Assembly (NCBI GenBank): GCA_025928655.1
Contig: JAICJC010000020.1
Coordinates: forward strand, 1 to 39,089
From: Thermoleophilia bacterium
GTDB taxonomy: Bacteria > Actinomycetota > Thermoleophilia > Gaiellales > JAICJC01
Reading direction: 5' to 3'
Length of the DNA: 39,089 bases
A model generated the notes under the pieces. The model was not told where the DNA came from, did not search any database, and saw nothing but the letters and a program-made list of their open reading frames with translations. Position 1 is the stretch's first letter; every line of letters starts with the position of its first letter. The translations under genes and the position numbers were made by a program. This document shows positions 10,511 through 39,089 of this stretch, one piece after another.

Positions 10511-11947
10511 TCAGTCCGCAACCACCTTGAACGAGCCCAGGGAGGAGTCGGTGGCGTAGGAGATCCTGGCGCCGTGCGCCGCCTCCGTCCGCAGCCGCTC
10601 CCACAGCTCCGCCCCGATCACCTCGCCCGGCGCGAGGGCGGGGATCCCGGGCGGGTAGGGCACCGCGAACTCGGCCGCGACCCGGCCGACCGCGTCCGCC
10701 GCGGCGACCCGCTCCGTGGGCGCGAACGCCGCCTCGCGCGGCGTCATCGCCTGCTCCGGGTTCGTGCGCCACGAGGTCGCCACGGGGGGCGGGTCGCCGA
10801 CGCTGCCGCGGTGCTCGTCGACGGCGGCGCGCAGGATAGGAACGAAGGCGTCGACGCGGCTCGCGTCGTCGCCGACGGTGATGTGCGGGATGAGCACGCG
10901 CCGGTCGGCACCCTCGACCTGGACGCCCCGTGCCCGCAGCGAGCGGTCGACGGCGATGCCGTCGGCGTGCGCGCCCGCCAGGTCGACGACGAGCTTCAGC
11001 GGGTCGCGGGCCAGCACGGACGGATGGCCGAGGACGGCGTCGTCGCCGATCACCCGCAGGCCCTCGATCGTCTCCACCCCCTCGCGCGCGCGTGCGTAAA
11101 GCTCGACCGCGGCGCCGATCAGCCGTTCGCCCTCGGCCTGCATCCACGCCCGGGTCTGGTCGATCGTGCTGTAGATCATGGCCGACGGGCTCGTCGTCAG
11201 CAGCATGTCGAAGGCCGCGCCCAGCCGCTCGAGGTCGATGCGGCCCGTGTCGCGGGCGAGCAGCAGCGCGCCGGGCGTGAGTGACATGAGCGTCTTGTGC
11301 GTGCTGAGCGCGATGGCGTCGGCGCCGAGCGCGAGCGCGTTGCGCGGGACGCTGCTCGCGAAGCCGAAGTGGGCCGCCCAGGCGTGGTCGCAGACGAGCG
11401 TCACCCCGCGCGCGTGGCAGGTCTCGGCGATCGCGGGCAGGTCGGAGAGGACGCCGACGTAGGACGGCTCGGTCAGGATCGCGGTGCGGATGCCCGGCTC
11501 GGCGTCGAGCGCTGCGGCAACCCGGCCGGCCGGCGTCCCGAGCGGGATGCCGAGCTCGTCGGAGACGTCCGGCGAGAGCCACACCGGCCGCGCCCCGGCC
11601 AGGATCAGGCCGGAGTAGACCGACTTGTGGCAGGTGCGGTGGACGAGCACCGGCTCCCCCGGCCGGGTCGTCGCCAGGCAGAGCGCCTGGTTGGGGTGAG
11701 TGGAGCCGTTGTGGCTGAACCGGCACATGTCGGCCCCCCACGCCGCCGCCGCCAGCGCCTCGGCCCGTTCGAGCACCTGGTGGTCGTTGCGCAGCGTGTC
11801 GGCGCCGCCGTGGTGGGGGATGTCCGAGAGCAGCAGCGACCCCTCGCCCACGAGCGCCGGGTTGCGCTTGTGCCCCGGGGTCGTCATGGGCGTCGGGACG
11901 TCGCGCAGGTAGGCGGCAACCGCGTCGGCGAAGGGGGTCTCGGTCAT
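10511..11947 (-). CDS. Orn/Lys/Arg decarboxylase-family PLP enzyme
   Basis: 'TPGHKRNPALVGEG', 'ADMCRFSHNGSTHPNQAL', 'HRTCHKSVYSGLILAGARPVW', 'LVCDHAWAAHFGF', 'ALSTHKTLMSLTPGALLL' (candidate PLP lysine). Start at 11947; ORF upstream of this is a shadow. Confidence 0.88.
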   Translation of the reverse strand: MTETPFADAVAAYLRDVPTPMTTPGHKRNPALVGEGSLLLSDIPHHGGADTLRNDHQVLERAEALAAAAWGADMCRFSHNGSTHPNQALCLATTRPGEPVLVHRTCHKSVYSGLILAGARPVWLSPDVSDELGIPLGTPAGRVAAALDAEPGIRTAILTEPSYVGVLSDLPAIAETCHARGVTLVCDHAWAAHFGFASSVPRNALALGADAIALSTHKTLMSLTPGALLLARDTGRIDLERLGAAFDMLLTTSPSAMIYSTIDQTRAWMQAEGERLIGAAVELYARAREGVETIEGLRVIGDDAVLGHPSVLARDPLKLVVDLAGAHADGIAVDRSLRARGVQVEGADRRVLIPHITVGDDASRVDAFVPILRAAVDEHRGSVGDPPPVATSWRTNPEQAMTPREAAFAPTERVAAADAVGRVAAEFAVPYPPGIPALAPGEVIGAELWERLRTEAAHGARISYATDSSLGSFKVVAD

Positions 11948-11970
11948 GCCGGGCGAGTCTACGCGCCGGC

Positions 11971-11993
11971 GGTTGCACCCGGCCCGGGCAACC
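11971..11993. promoter_or_regulatory. Inverted repeat GGTTGC-N11-GCAACC in divergent promoter region
   Basis: Perfect 6-bp arms between starts at 11947(-) and 12011(+). Confidence 0.4.
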
Positions 11994-12010
11994 CGCGATG
12001 ATCCGCCTCC

Positions 12011-13489
12011 ATGCCGCAGACGATCCCGGAGCTGTTCGACGAGGCGGTCGCCGCGGCGCCCGACAAGGTCTGGCTCGTTGCCGGGGACGAATCGTTCACC
12101 TATGCGGAGGCGCGCGCCCGGATCGGGCGAGCGGCGGCGGCGCTCCGCGCGGCCGGCCTGCGCCCCGGCGAGCCCGTGCTGGCGACCATGCGAAACACGC
12201 CGGACCACCTCTTCACATGGCTCGCGTCCGCCTACGCCGGCACCATCCTCGTCACCGCCAACCCGCGCAGCGCGGAGGCCGAGCTGGCGGGGCTGGTGGG
12301 CCAGGTGCGGCCGCGGCTGGTCGTCTCCGACGCTCCGCTTCCGGGCGCCGTCGCGGTCGAGCGCCTGTTCGAGGAGGAGGCGGGATTCGACGGGACCGGG
12401 CCCGCCGGGCCGGACGACGCCGCCGTCCTGATCCCGACATCGGGGACGACCGGCCGATCGAAGCTCGTCACGCAGACCCACCGCGCCTACGTGATGGCGG
12501 GCGAGGGCTTCCCGTGGTGGATGGAGCTCGGCCCCGACGACCGGCTGATGACCTCGCTCCCGCTCTTCCACATCAACGCGCCCACCTACTCGATGCTCGG
12601 GTCGGTCGCCGCCGGCGCCAGCCTGGCGCTCCTGCCCGGCTTCTCCGCCAGCGGGTTCCTGGCCTCGGCCCGGAAGCACGGCGCGACCGAGTTCAACGCG
12701 ATCGGGGCGATGCTCGAGATCCTGATGCGCCAGCCCGAGCGCCCCGACGACGCCGACACGCCCCTGCGCCTGTGCTACACGGGGCCGGCGCCGCCGAAGG
12801 AGCGCCACCTCGAGATCGAGCGCCGCTTCGGCCTGCGGATCGTGTGCGGGTACGCGATGTCGGAGACGCCGTACGGCACGATCTGGCCCCGGCGGACGCG
12901 CCCGTTCGGGACGCTCGGGAGCATTCGCCAGCACCCGACGCTGGGCGTCGTCAACGAGGGCCGGGTGATGCAGGACGGCGGCCCGGCCGGGCCGGGCGAG
13001 GTGGGCGAGCTCGAGCTGCGCAACCCGGCGGTGATGAAGGGCTACTGGGGCATGCCCGAGGAGACGGCGAAGGTGCTCTCCGACGACGGCTGGCTGCGCA
13101 CGGGCGATCTGGTGACGGACGACGGCGAGGGCACCTACACGTTCGTCGGCCGCGTTAAGGAGGTGATCCGGCGCCGGGGCGAGAACGTCGCGCCCGCCGA
13201 GATCGAGGAGGCGCTCGTCGACCATCCGGCCGTGTTCGAGGCGGCCGTCGTCGGCGTGCCGTCCGAGCTGTCCGAGGAGGACATCAAGGCGTTCGTCGTC
13301 CTCCATGACCCGGCTGCCGACCTCGCCGCCGTGCGCGACCATGCGGCGGGGCTGCTCGCGCCGTTCAAGGTGCCGCGCTACATGCAGGCGACGGCCGAGC
13401 TCCCGCACACGCCGACCGGCCGGGTGGCCAAGCATGAGATCACCCGCGAGCGCACGCCCGACGAGATCGACTTCGAGAGGAGAGCATGA
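12011..13489 (+). CDS. Class I adenylate-forming acyl-CoA synthetase (CaiC/FadD-like)
   Basis: 'LIPTSGTTGRSKLVTQTHRAY', 'GYAMSETPYGTI', 'DGWLRTGDLVTDDGEGTYTFVGRVKEVIRRRGENVAPAEIEEAL', 'LPHTPTGRVAKHEI'. Confidence 0.93.
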   Translation: MPQTIPELFDEAVAAAPDKVWLVAGDESFTYAEARARIGRAAAALRAAGLRPGEPVLATMRNTPDHLFTWLASAYAGTILVTANPRSAEAELAGLVGQVRPRLVVSDAPLPGAVAVERLFEEEAGFDGTGPAGPDDAAVLIPTSGTTGRSKLVTQTHRAYVMAGEGFPWWMELGPDDRLMTSLPLFHINAPTYSMLGSVAAGASLALLPGFSASGFLASARKHGATEFNAIGAMLEILMRQPERPDDADTPLRLCYTGPAPPKERHLEIERRFGLRIVCGYAMSETPYGTIWPRRTRPFGTLGSIRQHPTLGVVNEGRVMQDGGPAGPGEVGELELRNPAVMKGYWGMPEETAKVLSDDGWLRTGDLVTDDGEGTYTFVGRVKEVIRRRGENVAPAEIEEALVDHPAVFEAAVVGVPSELSEEDIKAFVVLHDPAADLAAVRDHAAGLLAPFKVPRYMQATAELPHTPTGRVAKHEITRERTPDEIDFERRA

Positions 13490-14259
13490 GCACGAGCGAC
13501 TGGCTACGCACCGACATCGGCACGACCACCGCCGACGCCATCACCATCCGCGGGCACGACCTGGCCGGGGAGCTGATGGGCCGGGTCACGTTCACCGAGC
13601 TCGCATTCCTGCTCGTCCAGGGCCGGATGCCCGCGGAGGGCGAGACGATGCTGCTCGACGCGGTGCTCGTCTCGCTCGCCGACCACGGCCTCACGCCGAC
13701 CGTGCTCGCGGCGAGGCTCACCTACACCGGCGCACCCGAGTCGCTTCAGGGCGCCGTCGCGTCGGGGCTCCTGGGCGCGGGGACGGTGTTCCTCGGCGTC
13801 GTCGAGGACGCGGCCGTGTTCCTGGCCGGCATCGTCGCGGGGTCGCAGGGCGACGTGGACCTGAACGCGGCGGCCGATGCGGCGGTCGCCGCCAGGCTGG
13901 AGTCGGGCCGGCGGGTGCCCGGCCTCGGCCACCCCATCCACAGGGTCGAGGACCCGCGCACGCCGCGCATGTACGCGATCGCCGAGGAGGCCGGCGTGCT
14001 CGGGCCGCACCTGCGCGCGCTCGAGCTGGTGGCGGCCGCGGCGGCGAAGCGGACCGGCCGCAGCCTCCCCATCAACGGCGCCGGCGCGGCGGGGGCGGCG
14101 CTCGCCGACATCGGCTTCGCGCCCGAGATCGTGCGCGGGTTCGCGCTGCTCGCGCGCACCGCGGGCGTCGTGGCGCACCTGGCGGAGGAGATGGAGCGGC
14201 CGCTGGGGATGCCGCTCTTCCGCTACGTCGACGAGCGGCTGGCGGAGGGACGGCGGTGA
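13486..14259 (+). CDS. Citrate synthase-fold protein, citryl-CoA lyase-like
   Basis: 'PGLGHPIHRVEDPRTPRMYAIAEE', 'LPINGAGAAGAALADIGF', 'ARTAGVVAHLAEEMERPLG'; too short for a full citrate synthase; 4-nt overlap with ligase. Confidence 0.8.
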   Translation: MSTSDWLRTDIGTTTADAITIRGHDLAGELMGRVTFTELAFLLVQGRMPAEGETMLLDAVLVSLADHGLTPTVLAARLTYTGAPESLQGAVASGLLGAGTVFLGVVEDAAVFLAGIVAGSQGDVDLNAAADAAVAARLESGRRVPGLGHPIHRVEDPRTPRMYAIAEEAGVLGPHLRALELVAAAAAKRTGRSLPINGAGAAGAALADIGFAPEIVRGFALLARTAGVVAHLAEEMERPLGMPLFRYVDERLAEGRR

Positions 14260-15038
14260 GCGGCCGGGTGCAGGGCAAGACGGTCGCCATCACGGGCGCG
14301 TCCTCCGGGCTCGGCCGGGCGATGGCGCTGCGGTTCGCGGCGGAGGGCGCGCACGTGGTGTGCGCCGACGTGCGCAGCGACCCGCGTGAGGGCGGCGAGC
14401 CGACCGTCGACGTGATCGCCGCGTCCGGCGGGAGCGGCGAGTACGTCGAGGCCGACGCGTCCCGCTGGGACGACATCGACCGGCTCGTCACGACGGCCGC
14501 CGCGCACTCCGGGCGGCTGGACGTGATGGTGAACAACGCCATCGTCGCCGGCCCCCACTCCAAGGGCCTGCTCGAGACGGAGGAGGACGACTGGGACGCG
14601 ATCATGGCCGTCGGCCTGCGCGGCGTCTTCCTGTGCTGCAAGCGGGCCGTGCAGCAGATGCTGACCCAGGAGCCGGTGGCCGAGGCCCGTGGCCGCATCA
14701 TCAACCTGTCGTCGCAGCACGGCATGATCGGGGCGCCCGGGCACGTCGCCTACTGTACGGCCAAGGGCGGCGTGGTCAACCTGACCCGCCAGGTGGCGGT
14801 CGACTTCGCCCGGCGCGGGATCATCGTGAACGCGATCGCGCCCGGCAAGATCCTCACCCGCCCCGCCGACGAGCCGGACACGCCCGAAGTGCTCGCCTAT
14901 TCGCACTCGCGAACGCCGTTCTCGCGCCTGGGCCGCCCGGACGACGTGGCGGCGGCGGCGCTCTATCTGGCCTCGGACGAGTGCTCGTACGTCAGCGGCA
15001 CGAACCTGCTCGTCGACGGCGGCTGGATGGCCTACTGA
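14256..15038 (+). CDS. SDR-family oxidoreductase
   Basis: 'AITGASSGLGRAMALRFA', 'NLSSQHGMIGAPGHVAYCTAKGG', 'LLVDGGWMAY'; GTGA overlap start at 14256. Confidence 0.92.
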   Translation: MSGRVQGKTVAITGASSGLGRAMALRFAAEGAHVVCADVRSDPREGGEPTVDVIAASGGSGEYVEADASRWDDIDRLVTTAAAHSGRLDVMVNNAIVAGPHSKGLLETEEDDWDAIMAVGLRGVFLCCKRAVQQMLTQEPVAEARGRIINLSSQHGMIGAPGHVAYCTAKGGVVNLTRQVAVDFARRGIIVNAIAPGKILTRPADEPDTPEVLAYSHSRTPFSRLGRPDDVAAAALYLASDECSYVSGTNLLVDGGWMAY

Positions 15039-35456: not shown

Positions 35457-37769
35457 TCACGGCCGTCTGCGCCGGAGAAACCGGCGCGGCGACGGCTCGG
35501 CGAGATCGGCGAGCACGCGAGAGACGATGGTGGGGCGCGGCGGGTCCGTGAACACCCGCGGCCGCTCCTCGATCTCGTCCTCCTCTGGCGGGTGCGAGAA
35601 CGCAAACACGTCGGTGCTGAACACGAGGAGCGCCGTGCGCTGGTCCGGGAAGACGCCTGCCAGCGATCGCGCGACACGCCGAAGCGCCATGGCCTCGTCC
35701 CGTGCCACCTTGCCGGCGAGAACGCGGGCGTCCACCGCGAACAGCTCCCCCACGAGACCGCTCAGCGCAGCCGGAACGCCGAATCGCTCCAACGCGGCCG
35801 GGTCGTATTGCCGCAGGATGTCGATCAACGCCGTCCACGACTCGAGCGCCGCGACGCCGGACGGCGACGCGAGGTTCAGGCCGCTGGTCGGGACGAGCTC
35901 GATCCAGAGGCGTGCGACGTCCGGGGCAGGGGGCGCCGCCTGCACGAGAGCGGCAAGGCCGTACCACTCCTGCAGCAGCACGAGCCCAGCCGGGTCGAGG
36001 TCGGCAGGAAGGATCCGCTCGAGGAGCCGCCCGGCGAGTGCATCGAGCTCGGCCACCGCATGCCGGTCGTCGACGCGCTTGCGGTCGTGGACGGCCGCGG
36101 AGACCTGGCGCAGGATGCGGACGCGATCGGCCAGGCCGAGATCGGCGACGAGCGCGCCGGCGTGACCCAGGAGGGCGTCCCAGTCGGCGTCCCCGGCCAG
36201 GAGCGGCAGGTGGCGTTCGCCGGCGGACCCGCCGCGCACCGACAGGGCCAGAAGAGCCCCCTCGACCCCGCAGCGGCCCAGGAACCCGCATCGCCCGACC
36301 GGGTCGTGCCCGAGCTGCTCGATCACGAGATCGCGCCAGCTCGGGTGCACCCACGTCACGGCTGTCGGCGGTACGCGTCGCAGGAAGTGATCCTCCAGCC
36401 GGTCGACGAGGGCCGCAACCGGCTGGGCGAGCTCGTGCCGGTGGCGCCTGACCGCAGCGGCCAGGTCGCGCTCGGGCACCGGCCCGGGCGGCGCGTCGAG
36501 CATCGCGACGAGGATGTCGCGGTGGTCGGCGTCGAGCGCGGCGAGCGAGGCGGCCATCGCGTCAGTGGGACTGCCGATCTCGAACGCGATGCTCTCGGCG
36601 ATCTCCGCGCCGGGGGCGTCGCCCTCGAGCTCCGCCAGCCGCCCGGCGACGAGTCGCCGGATCCGCTCCGGGGTGAGATAGGGATCGCTCACGATGTTCG
36701 CGGCCTGCGCCCGGATCACCCGGCGGGGGCCGGCTCCGAGCCCGGCGGCGACCGCGTGGCGGAACAGCATCAGCGCCTTCTCGCCGTCCGTCAGGTCGGT
36801 CGCGTCCACCATGACCTCCCCCGGCCTGGGGAACCGCTGGAGGCCGTTCTCGCGATGGATGCGGCGGAGGGCGGCATGGAGGGGAGCGGGCCGGGACGTC
36901 CAGACGAGGACGTGCCGATCGTCGAGGTGCTGCAGGATCCGGTCGAGGTCGAGCGCCCACCGCTCGGCCGCGTCCGCGCGGTACTCGGTCGAGCCGAACG
37001 CATCATCGGCGATGAACATCTGCCGGCCGTCGCGGCGATACGCGCGCCAGAGCGCGTCCGGATCGGTGCACTCGCATACCTCCCACCCCTGGCAGAGCCG
37101 CACCAGCCCGAGCATCCGGGCGGCCGCGGTCTTGCCCATCTCGGGCGGCCCCGAGAGCACCGCGAAGCGGTGCCGCCCGACGACGTCGCAGCAGCGCTGG
37201 TAGGCGCCGGTCGCCACGAACGTCGGAGCCAGCGCCCGCGCGGCGCCAAGATCGAACGTCGAGTCGCGGCCCGCATCGGCCCCCACGAGGTCGTCGAGGC
37301 CGCGCACCCCGAGGACGGCCGGCACCCTGAGCCAGAGGTCGGCGCGATCGTCGATCAGGCGGCCCAGCTCGGCCCGGCCGAGCACGACGATGTCGGCCTC
37401 GCCCGGGAGATGCTCCGAGGCGAGCGAGCACAGGTCGGCGTTCCCGGTCGCATTCGTGAGCACGATCACGCTGCCGCCGGGCTCTGCCTCGATGCCGCCG
37501 CCCAGCGCTTCGGCGAGGCGGTTACGCGCATCCCAGTTCGTGGTGGCCCAGCGCGGGAACCACACCACGCAGGCGACGGTCGGCCCGGCAACGGGGCGGC
37601 GGGCCAGCGCCTGCGCGGAGTGCGCCGAGATCGTCGCCCACCGGGTGGTATCCGCCTCCCCCAGCCACGCCTCCGGAGCGACCCCGTGCGCCGCCAGGAG
37701 CTCCGTGCACACGAATTCGAACTGCAGCCAACCGAGCGCGGTCAGGTCATAGCGGGTCACCACGACCAA
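35457..37769 (-). CDS. Large P-loop NTPase, putative nSTAND (nSTAND3-like), with N-terminal restriction-endonuclease-like segment
   Basis: 770 aa; Walker A 'LSGPPEMGKTAAARML' (37128-37151), 'MFIADDAFGSTEY' Walker B/DDxFG-like (36993-37019), 'VLVWTSRPAPLHAAL' sensor-like; N-terminus 'YDLTALGWLQFEFVCTELLAAHGV'; long helical C-terminus. Confidence 0.65.
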   Translation of the reverse strand: MVVVTRYDLTALGWLQFEFVCTELLAAHGVAPEAWLGEADTTRWATISAHSAQALARRPVAGPTVACVVWFPRWATTNWDARNRLAEALGGGIEAEPGGSVIVLTNATGNADLCSLASEHLPGEADIVVLGRAELGRLIDDRADLWLRVPAVLGVRGLDDLVGADAGRDSTFDLGAARALAPTFVATGAYQRCCDVVGRHRFAVLSGPPEMGKTAAARMLGLVRLCQGWEVCECTDPDALWRAYRRDGRQMFIADDAFGSTEYRADAAERWALDLDRILQHLDDRHVLVWTSRPAPLHAALRRIHRENGLQRFPRPGEVMVDATDLTDGEKALMLFRHAVAAGLGAGPRRVIRAQAANIVSDPYLTPERIRRLVAGRLAELEGDAPGAEIAESIAFEIGSPTDAMAASLAALDADHRDILVAMLDAPPGPVPERDLAAAVRRHRHELAQPVAALVDRLEDHFLRRVPPTAVTWVHPSWRDLVIEQLGHDPVGRCGFLGRCGVEGALLALSVRGGSAGERHLPLLAGDADWDALLGHAGALVADLGLADRVRILRQVSAAVHDRKRVDDRHAVAELDALAGRLLERILPADLDPAGLVLLQEWYGLAALVQAAPPAPDVARLWIELVPTSGLNLASPSGVAALESWTALIDILRQYDPAALERFGVPAALSGLVGELFAVDARVLAGKVARDEAMALRRVARSLAGVFPDQRTALLVFSTDVFAFSHPPEEDEIEERPRVFTDPPRPTIVSRVLADLAEPSPRRFLRRRRP

Positions 37770-37793: not shown

Positions 37794-38525
37794 TCATGCC
37801 CCGGTGGGGCTGGCCATCCCGGTGTACGGGATGCGCTCGGGCGCCGCGTAGGTGCCGACCTTTGCGGTCGTGATGCCGGTCCGCCACAGGCCGTACGCGA
37901 GCATCGCGCCGAACCCGACGCCGTCGCAGACCGGCACGCCGACGGCGTCCTGCACCGCCCGGGCGACGTCCGCCATTCCGCCGCAGGCGAGGATGAGCGA
38001 CTCGGCGCCGCGCTCCTCGACCGCCCGCCGCGCGGCGGCCACGATCGCCGTCGTGGTGTCGGGATGGTCGGCGCCCTGGTCGGCGACCGGGATGTCGAGG
38101 GCGAGCACGCCGGCGCAGCGGCGCAGGACCCCGCGGGCGTCGATCATGTCCTCGAGCGCCGGGATGCCGCGGGGCAGGGTCGTGATCACCGCGAACCGCC
38201 CGGAGACGAGCCCCGCAGCGAGGAACGCGGCCTCGCCGATGCCGATCACCGGCGCCGCCGTCAGCTCGCGGGCGGCGTCGAGCCCGGGGTCGCCGAAGCA
38301 CGAGATCAGGTAGCCGTCGAGGCCTGCGTGGGCCTGCACCATCGCCGCCACCTCGCCCACGGCGACGGCGGTGTCGGCCGCGCTCTCGATCGAGCTCGGC
38401 CCCCGGGCGGCGGTGACGGCCACGACCTCGCACCCCGCCGGCAGGGCGGCGTGGGCGACGCCGGCCATCGCGTCGGTGTGGCGGTGGTCGGTGTTCGGGT
38501 TGAGGAGGCCGAGGCGGAAGCTCAC
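37794..38525 (-). CDS. Asp/Glu/hydantoin racemase-family protein
   Basis: 'LGLLNPNTDHRHTDAMAG', 'YLISCFGDPGLDAARELTAAPVIGIGEAAFLAA', 'LILACGGMADVARAVQDAVGVPVCDGV'; GTG start 38525. Confidence 0.88.
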   Translation of the reverse strand: MSFRLGLLNPNTDHRHTDAMAGVAHAALPAGCEVVAVTAARGPSSIESAADTAVAVGEVAAMVQAHAGLDGYLISCFGDPGLDAARELTAAPVIGIGEAAFLAAGLVSGRFAVITTLPRGIPALEDMIDARGVLRRCAGVLALDIPVADQGADHPDTTTAIVAAARRAVEERGAESLILACGGMADVARAVQDAVGVPVCDGVGFGAMLAYGLWRTGITTAKVGTYAAPERIPYTGMASPTGA

Positions 38526-39089
38526 GCCGTGACCCCGGCGGCGGCCGCCGGCGCGGCCGCGAAGTCGTCGTGCACGGAGAGGAACCGGCCCGTACCGGGC
38601 GGGACGACGATCTCGCCGTCGCGGTGGACCGTGATCCCGCGCACGAGGGTGCGCACGCACCGGGCGCGGCTGGCCCGGCCGTCGAACGGCGACCACGGGT
38701 TCTTCGAGTGCTGCTGGCTCTTCGCGTCCACCGTCCACTCGTGCTCGAGGTCGAACAGGGCGAGGTCGGCGTCCGCGCCGGGCAGGATCGTGCCCTTGCG
38801 CGGGTAGAGGCCGATCGTGCGCGCGGCGTTCGTCGAGCTGAAGCGGGCGAAGGCGTCGAGCGGCATGCCGCGCCGGTGGTAGGCCTCGTCGAGCACGAGC
38901 GGCACCGTCTCCTGCATCACCTGGCATCCGAGCGGCGCGGCGAAGATGTCCTCCCAGCCCGGCTCCTTCTCCTCGATCGTGTACGCGCAGTGGTCGGAGA
39001 CCAGGCTGTCGAGCGTGCCGTCCAGCACCCGCTCCCACATCCCCTCGACCAGCTCCCGCGGGCGCAGCGCCGGGGCGCAGCGGCCGTAC
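38522..39089 (-). CDS. Allantoinase/dihydroorotase-like amidohydrolase, C-terminal part (5' end outside window)
   Basis: 'DSLVSDHCAYTIEEKEPGWEDIFAAPLG', 'KGTILPGADADLALFDLEHEWTVDAKSQQHSKNPWSPFDG'; 4-nt overlap with the racemase gene. Confidence 0.85.
   Translation of the reverse strand, partial: YGRCAPALRPRELVEGMWERVLDGTLDSLVSDHCAYTIEEKEPGWEDIFAAPLGCQVMQETVPLVLDEAYHRRGMPLDAFARFSSTNAARTIGLYPRKGTILPGADADLALFDLEHEWTVDAKSQQHSKNPWSPFDGRASRARCVRTLVRGITVHRDGEIVVPPGTGRFLSVHDDFAAAPAAAAGVTA

What the first reader, a model, noticed from the sequence alone, without database searches (positions are those of the whole stretch)
35457..37769. Putative nSTAND-type NTPase with an apparently degenerate nuclease-like N-terminus inside a metabolic locus
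Seen: Walker A GPPEMGKT, MFIADDAFGS and VWTSR motifs, plus a helical C-terminal half. This order resembles nSTAND3-type NTPases, which are often fused to N-terminal restriction-endonuclease-like domains and linked to anti-phage defence. Here the N-terminal ~150 aa looks like such a fold ('LQFEFVCTELLAAHGV', 'VIVLTNATGNADL'), but where D...ExK residues and a V-x-C-K-like strand are expected I read 'VACVVWFPRW'. So the effector may be catalytically dead or a different activity. The gene sits between a racemase and a TPP enzyme, not in an obvious defence island.
Basis: partly seen in the sequence, partly recalled or inferred. Interest (0 to 1): 0.72.

Follow-up and report, generated by a model that had tools for sequence, protein, structure and literature searches.

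The report
STAND immune-type switch with dead nuclease
This soil-type actinobacterial gene makes an ATP-driven sensor protein of the kind used against viruses, but the DNA-cutting part it inherited has lost its cutting residues in a whole family of relatives while being kept by selection, so it probably signals in some way other than cutting DNA.

Summary
Window 35457-37769 (-) encodes a 770-aa nSTAND3 protein (PF20720, E 3.9e-25). Its N-terminal ~155 aa are homologous to the Mrr-type nuclease domain of REase-nSTAND3 proteins (hhalign 97-98%; shuffled controls <=0.9%). In 16 of 16 relatives from Thermoleophilia the Q-x-K of the active site is gone, and in 15 of 16 so is the catalytic Asp; all three are present in 12 of 12 comparators. 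One tree branch (96/97) holds all nuclease-dead members. Their sister (L025/L072) keeps the active site and sits at a tRNA-Cys beside a CBASS pair (CD-NTase + Cap15). Dead members sit among ordinary genes, with no recognisable defence neighbours in 12 loci. The window gene lies between a racemase and a TPP enzyme that belong to separate loci in relatives lacking it, so it is not part of that pathway. The dead domain is still under purifying selection. Best reading: an Avs-like ATP-driven switch, descended from a defence nuclease, whose effector now works without cutting, probably by docking a partner. Partner, trigger and any phage protection are unknown. In Solirubrobacter the gene is split into two overlapping ORFs.

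The parts
35457..37769 (-). CDS, 770 aa, nSTAND3 protein with nuclease-dead N-terminal REase-like domain (TTG start at 37769; GTG at 37766/37763 also possible)
37305..37757 (-). N-terminal Mrr/REase-like domain, aa 5-155, catalytically dead
   Evidence: hhalign to intact REase domains 97.4-98.4% with controls <=0.9%; AF2 alone pLDDT 88 with an element order that fits a PD-(D/E)XK core
37638..37640 (-). W44: column of the catalytic Asp of GRD
   Evidence: D in 12/12 intact, 1/16 dead
37563..37571 (-). C67-V69: column of Q-x-K
   Evidence: Q and K in 12/12 intact, 0/16 dead
36756..37220 (-). nSTAND3 NTPase domain, aa 184-338
   Evidence: PF20720 E 3.9e-25; same span
37128..37151 (-). Walker A GPPEMGKT, aa 207-214
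   Evidence: nearly invariant in family
36990..37019 (-). Walker B MFIADDAFGS, aa 251-260
   Evidence: ADDAFGSTEY invariant in family
36891..36905 (-). sensor-1-like VWTSR, aa 289-293
   Evidence: WTSR invariant in A1
36366..36749 (-). helical/winged-helix-like region, aa 341-468; ends where the gene is split in Solirubrobacter
35460..36365 (-). C-terminal helical (presumed sensor) region, aa 469-770, beginning with VTWVHPSWRDLVI
   Evidence: position equivalent to NPSVxDFL of intact nSTAND3 proteins
37794..38525 (-). context only: Asp/Glu/hydantoin racemase
   Evidence: PF01177 E 2.6e-49
38522..39088 (-). context only: amidohydrolase (hydantoinase-like), cut by the window end
   Evidence: PF01979
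33736..35376 (-). context only: TPP-dependent enzyme
   Evidence: PF02776/PF00205/PF02775

Best explanation
The gene encodes a one-protein STAND switch: C-terminal helical sensor, central nSTAND3 ATPase, N-terminal effector. Shown: the effector has the sequence profile of an Mrr-type PD-(D/E)XK nuclease, its catalytic residues were lost on the branch leading to a Thermoleophilia clade, and the domain has been kept under purifying selection since. Inferred: ligand binding to the C-terminal half lets the ATPase assemble into an oligomer, as in Avs5; the clustered pseudo-nuclease domains then act without cutting, most likely by docking a partner protein. Also inferred: the trigger is still invader-related, since the gene behaves like a defence gene (patchy, fast-evolving ends, sitting at a rearrangement junction) although it no longer lies with other defence genes.
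For: nSTAND3 E 3.9e-25. Intact-nuclease relatives: Mrr_cat above cut-off in L063; hhalign of the dead clade alone against them 97.4%, E 1.2e-11, or 75-88% if the bridging sequence L069 is left out; shuffled and unrelated controls <=0.9%. Catalytic Gln and Lys lost in 16/16 and Asp in 15/16, one branch 96/97. Domain kept: 53 aa changes against 74.8 +/- 3.7 expected at random between window and G398. All NTPase motifs kept. Top fold matches are Avs5 filaments. Intact sister beside CD-NTase, Cap15, PIN and tRNA-Cys. Patchy: 11 of 399 class genomes; 70% identity against 89-93% for flanking genes; not found in relatives where the flanking genes sit apart. The dead domain is more acidic than the intact one, which disfavours DNA binding.
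Against: No defence gene is recognisable beside the dead members. Fold search with the N-terminal model alone found nothing significant; only weak PD-(D/E)XK entries such as XPF, Mus81 and Can2 appear. Partner and trigger are unknown. The sister in the defence island is a single locus in one fragmented genome. The charge difference may partly reflect base composition.
Confidence: 0.5

Rival explanations
1. Domesticated, non-defence version: the pseudo-nuclease STAND protein was exapted from a defence gene to a chromosomal signalling or stress role in Thermoleophilia.
For: Dead members lie in housekeeping loci, are syntenic within genus g1 and, to judge by the flanking genes, within Solirubrobacter, and the only intact relative found in the class sits in a defence island.
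Against: Patchy presence and fast divergence of the N- and C-terminal parts relative to flanking genes are unusual for a housekeeping role.
Confidence: 0.28
2. The domain is still a nuclease with a relocated active site.
For: D40 (14/16) and R43 (15/16) are conserved, and E or Q18 is present in 15/16.
Against: D40 is also in all intact relatives and R43 in some, where the catalytic D, Q and K are separate and complete; no conserved Lys and no second conserved acid in the core replaces them, and the dead domain has 0-2 lysines.
Confidence: 0.1
3. Pathway-specific regulator of the racemase/TPP catabolic genes, like STAND regulators of the MalT type.
For: Same strand, 24-30 bp behind the racemase; same place in G398.
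Against: Relatives G397 and G400 have both flanking genes in separate places without it; homologues have unrelated neighbours; no HTH domain found.
Confidence: 0.06
4. A decaying remnant of a defence gene without function.
For: Dead active site; some relatives have frameshifts (L012, L026).
Against: Most of the 16 relatives are full-length down to ~40% identity, all NTPase motifs are kept, and every domain shows purifying selection.
Confidence: 0.06

Closest known systems
REase-nSTAND3 proteins (PADLOC candidate PDC-S73; Mrr_cat + PF20720, annotated 'restriction endonuclease' on plasmids)
   Same: Same order: REase-like N-terminus, nSTAND3, helical C-terminus of similar length; profile-level homology over all of the N-terminus
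   Different: Catalytic D, Q and K all lost in the window protein; PDC-S73 model matches only its NTPase part (158-339) but aa 1-519 of the intact sister
Avs5 (SIR2-nSTAND3; PMC12931631)
   Same: Tripartite effector-nSTAND3-helical sensor; best fold matches 9jap and 9nc9
   Different: Effector is a dead REase-like domain, not SIR2; low sequence identity (10%)
Inactive-effector conflict systems (Kaur et al. 2020, PMC7159879)
   Same: Precedent for catalytically inactive enzyme domains as effectors of NTP-dependent conflict systems
   Different: Those are vWA-MoxR ternary systems; no vWA-MoxR pair was noted directly beside this gene

Membership tests
nSTAND3 (PF20720) | match above Pfam gathering score over the domain | tested here: met
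   88.8 bits against 27.2, profile 1-152/155
nSTAND3 (PF20720) | intact Walker A and Walker B | tested here: met
   GPPEMGKT, ADDAFGS nearly invariant
REase-nSTAND3 / PDC-S73 | N-terminal domain homologous to Mrr-type REase | tested here: met
   hhalign 97.4% without the intact sister; controls <=0.9%
REase-nSTAND3 / PDC-S73 | D...Q-x-K catalytic residues | tested here: not met
   W44, C67, V69; Q and K 0/16 in clade
REase-nSTAND3 / PDC-S73 | PDC-S73 profile over N-terminus and NTPase | tested here: not met
   match 158-339 only; intact sister 1-519
Avs (AVAST) | tripartite effector-STAND-helical sensor | tested here: met
   AF2 model and Avs5 as top fold match
Avs (AVAST) | recognition of a phage protein and phage protection | not testable with these tools
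   needs experiment
Defence-island gene | known defence genes within 10 kb | tested here: not met
   118 neighbours in 12 dead-clade loci: only generic kinase, hydrolase and similar matches among the 25 of 34 families shown

The most novel reading that the evidence does not exclude
A clade of STAND immune switches in which the nuclease effector became a pseudo-nuclease once and was then kept as a non-catalytic signalling domain, in one genus as a two-polypeptide system: a STAND immune mechanism whose output is assembly or recruitment rather than enzymatic killing.
Probability: 0.35. Interest if true: 0.75.

Novelty: new variant of a known kind. Interest (0 to 1): 0.5.

Why it matters
STAND defence proteins are understood as sensors that switch on an enzyme. 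A clade that kept the sensor and ATPase but uniformly lost the nuclease chemistry, with an active-site-intact sister in a CBASS-bearing island, is a natural experiment: it asks whether a STAND switch can act by assembly alone, or has left defence for signalling. Pairing the dead protein with its intact sister makes this directly testable.

Tried and rejected
Fold search with the N-terminal model alone: no significant match, so the REase assignment rests on sequence profiles. Profile search of the solved structures: nothing useful. NCBIfam: nothing. Viral contigs: no relative. Plasmids: only distant relatives, none over 80% of the length. YN00 dN/dS failed and the IQ-TREE codon run printed no omega value; replaced by a substitution-shuffling test. 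A DNA-binding effector was considered and lowered because the dead domain is net acidic (mean about -4 against 0). Pathway regulator rejected by the arrangement in G397 and G400. Partner role for an intact paralogue lowered: no other strong nSTAND3 gene in G000 or G398.

Full report
WHAT IS THERE. The 770-aa ORF at 35457-37769 (-) is real. Pfam gives one family, nSTAND3 (PF20720), E 3.9e-25. Its genome (G000) holds one copy and no other nSTAND3 match. Full-length relatives at 40-48% identity occur in Thermoleophilia, and a 70% orthologue lies in the same genus, G398. In a class sample 11 of 399 genomes have it; in the wider phylum sample only distant nSTAND3 proteins were found besides the window itself.

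N-TERMINUS. The AlphaFold2 model is good (pLDDT 84.7 whole, 88.2 for the N-terminus alone) and the order of elements in the N-terminus fits a PD-(D/E)XK core. A fold search with that domain alone is not significant, so I rely on profiles. Against ten REase-nSTAND3 N-termini (nine from plasmids and L002; Mrr_cat above cut-off in L063) hhalign gives 98.4%. That alignment contained the intact sister L025; without it the value is 97.4%, E 1.2e-11, and 75-88% when the bridging sequence L069 is also left out. Sixty column shuffles reach at most 0.9%, the reversed profile 0.6%, unrelated families 0.4% or less.

LOSS OF THE ACTIVE SITE. In the MAFFT alignment the catalytic Asp, Gln and Lys are present in 12 of 12 intact proteins. 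In the 16 clade members Gln and Lys are absent in all, and Asp in 15. In the window they are W44, C67 and V69. The replacements differ from member to member, which is what a site freed from catalysis looks like. A tree of the NTPase region puts all 16 on one branch (96/97), with the intact L025 as sister. One sister sequence is thin support for a single loss.

NOT A RUIN. Between window and G398 the N-terminus has 53 amino-acid changes where random placement of the same substitutions gives 74.8 +/- 3.7 (minimum 62 in 1000 trials); the other domains are also constrained. Mean pairwise identity within the clade is 34% for the N-terminus, 66% for nSTAND3, 52% for the winged-helix region and 40% for the C-terminus. 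The nSTAND gene evolves faster than its flanking genes (70% against 89-93%).

CONTEXT. The intact sister (L072, G593) lies 1.6 kb from a tRNA-Cys, with a CD-NTase (PADLOC E 4e-85), Cap15 (PF18153), a PIN protein, a PDC-S16 match and a second nucleotidyltransferase within 4 kb, in DNA of lower GC. Several intact plasmid relatives neighbour HEPN, NACHT or Abi-type genes. Dead members do not: among 118 genes around 12 loci PADLOC matched mainly generic Ser/Thr kinases, hydrolases and the like (25 of 34 families were shown). In the window the gene is 24-30 bp behind a racemase and 80 bp before a TPP enzyme. In G397 and G400 the racemase is followed by an alcohol-dehydrogenase-like gene and the TPP gene is preceded by an aminotransferase-like gene (these two names are read from the sequences, not from a profile search). 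The two loci are separate there, and joined, with the nSTAND gene at the joint, in the window and G398. Contig ends limit how far this can be followed, and G397 is only 81% complete.

MECHANISM. Shown: domain order, intact NTPase motifs, dead effector, purifying selection. Inferred: an Avs-like switch, since the top fold matches are Avs5 filaments and Avs5 is a tripartite SIR2-nSTAND3-repeat protein (PMC12931631). Inferred: output by partner docking. Inactive enzyme domains as effectors in NTP-dependent conflict systems have been described (PMC7159879). No paper in the library names PDC-S73, and a pseudonuclease STAND effector was not found in the searches made.

GENE SPLIT. In two Solirubrobacter species (four assemblies: L015, L017, and L115/L116 from G806/G807, which appear to be the same two species) the gene is two ORFs overlapping by ATGA, cut just before the VxWVHPSWRD motif. 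The ORFs are 64% and 54% identical between the species, so the split is old and kept. It fits a sensor half that works as a separate chain.

Noticed in passing
L015:9992-12042; L017:10031-12201; L115; L116: In Solirubrobacter the gene is split into two ORFs overlapping by ATGA at the winged-helix/C-terminal border.
   Followed up: yes
L014:3030-6576 and 11101-14323: Two copies of the nSTAND gene, each divergent from a copy of a phosphomannomutase-like gene: a duplicated two-gene unit.
   Followed up: partly
L072:3567-11499: Island next to tRNA-Cys with intact REase-nSTAND3, PIN, DUF2188 (PDC-S16), CD-NTase, Cap15 and a second nucleotidyltransferase that weakly matches CBASS cyclases.
   Followed up: partly
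L119, L120, L131, L098/L103: Large proteins (open frames about 960-1300 aa where the contig allows) carrying a related intact-looking REase N-terminus (GRDGGRE...QAKF) on a different body, in Actinomycetota.
   Followed up: no
L012 near 11720; L026: Frame breaks in two MAG members (L012 in the C-terminal half; L026 several), either errors or decay.
   Followed up: no
L021:516-2765: The most divergent dead N-terminus: the GxAD..R motif itself is lost.
   Followed up: no
L069:1261-5244: An intact relative on a Bradyrhizobium plasmid directly behind an AbiEi/AbiEii toxin-antitoxin pair, spaced like an operon.
   Followed up: no
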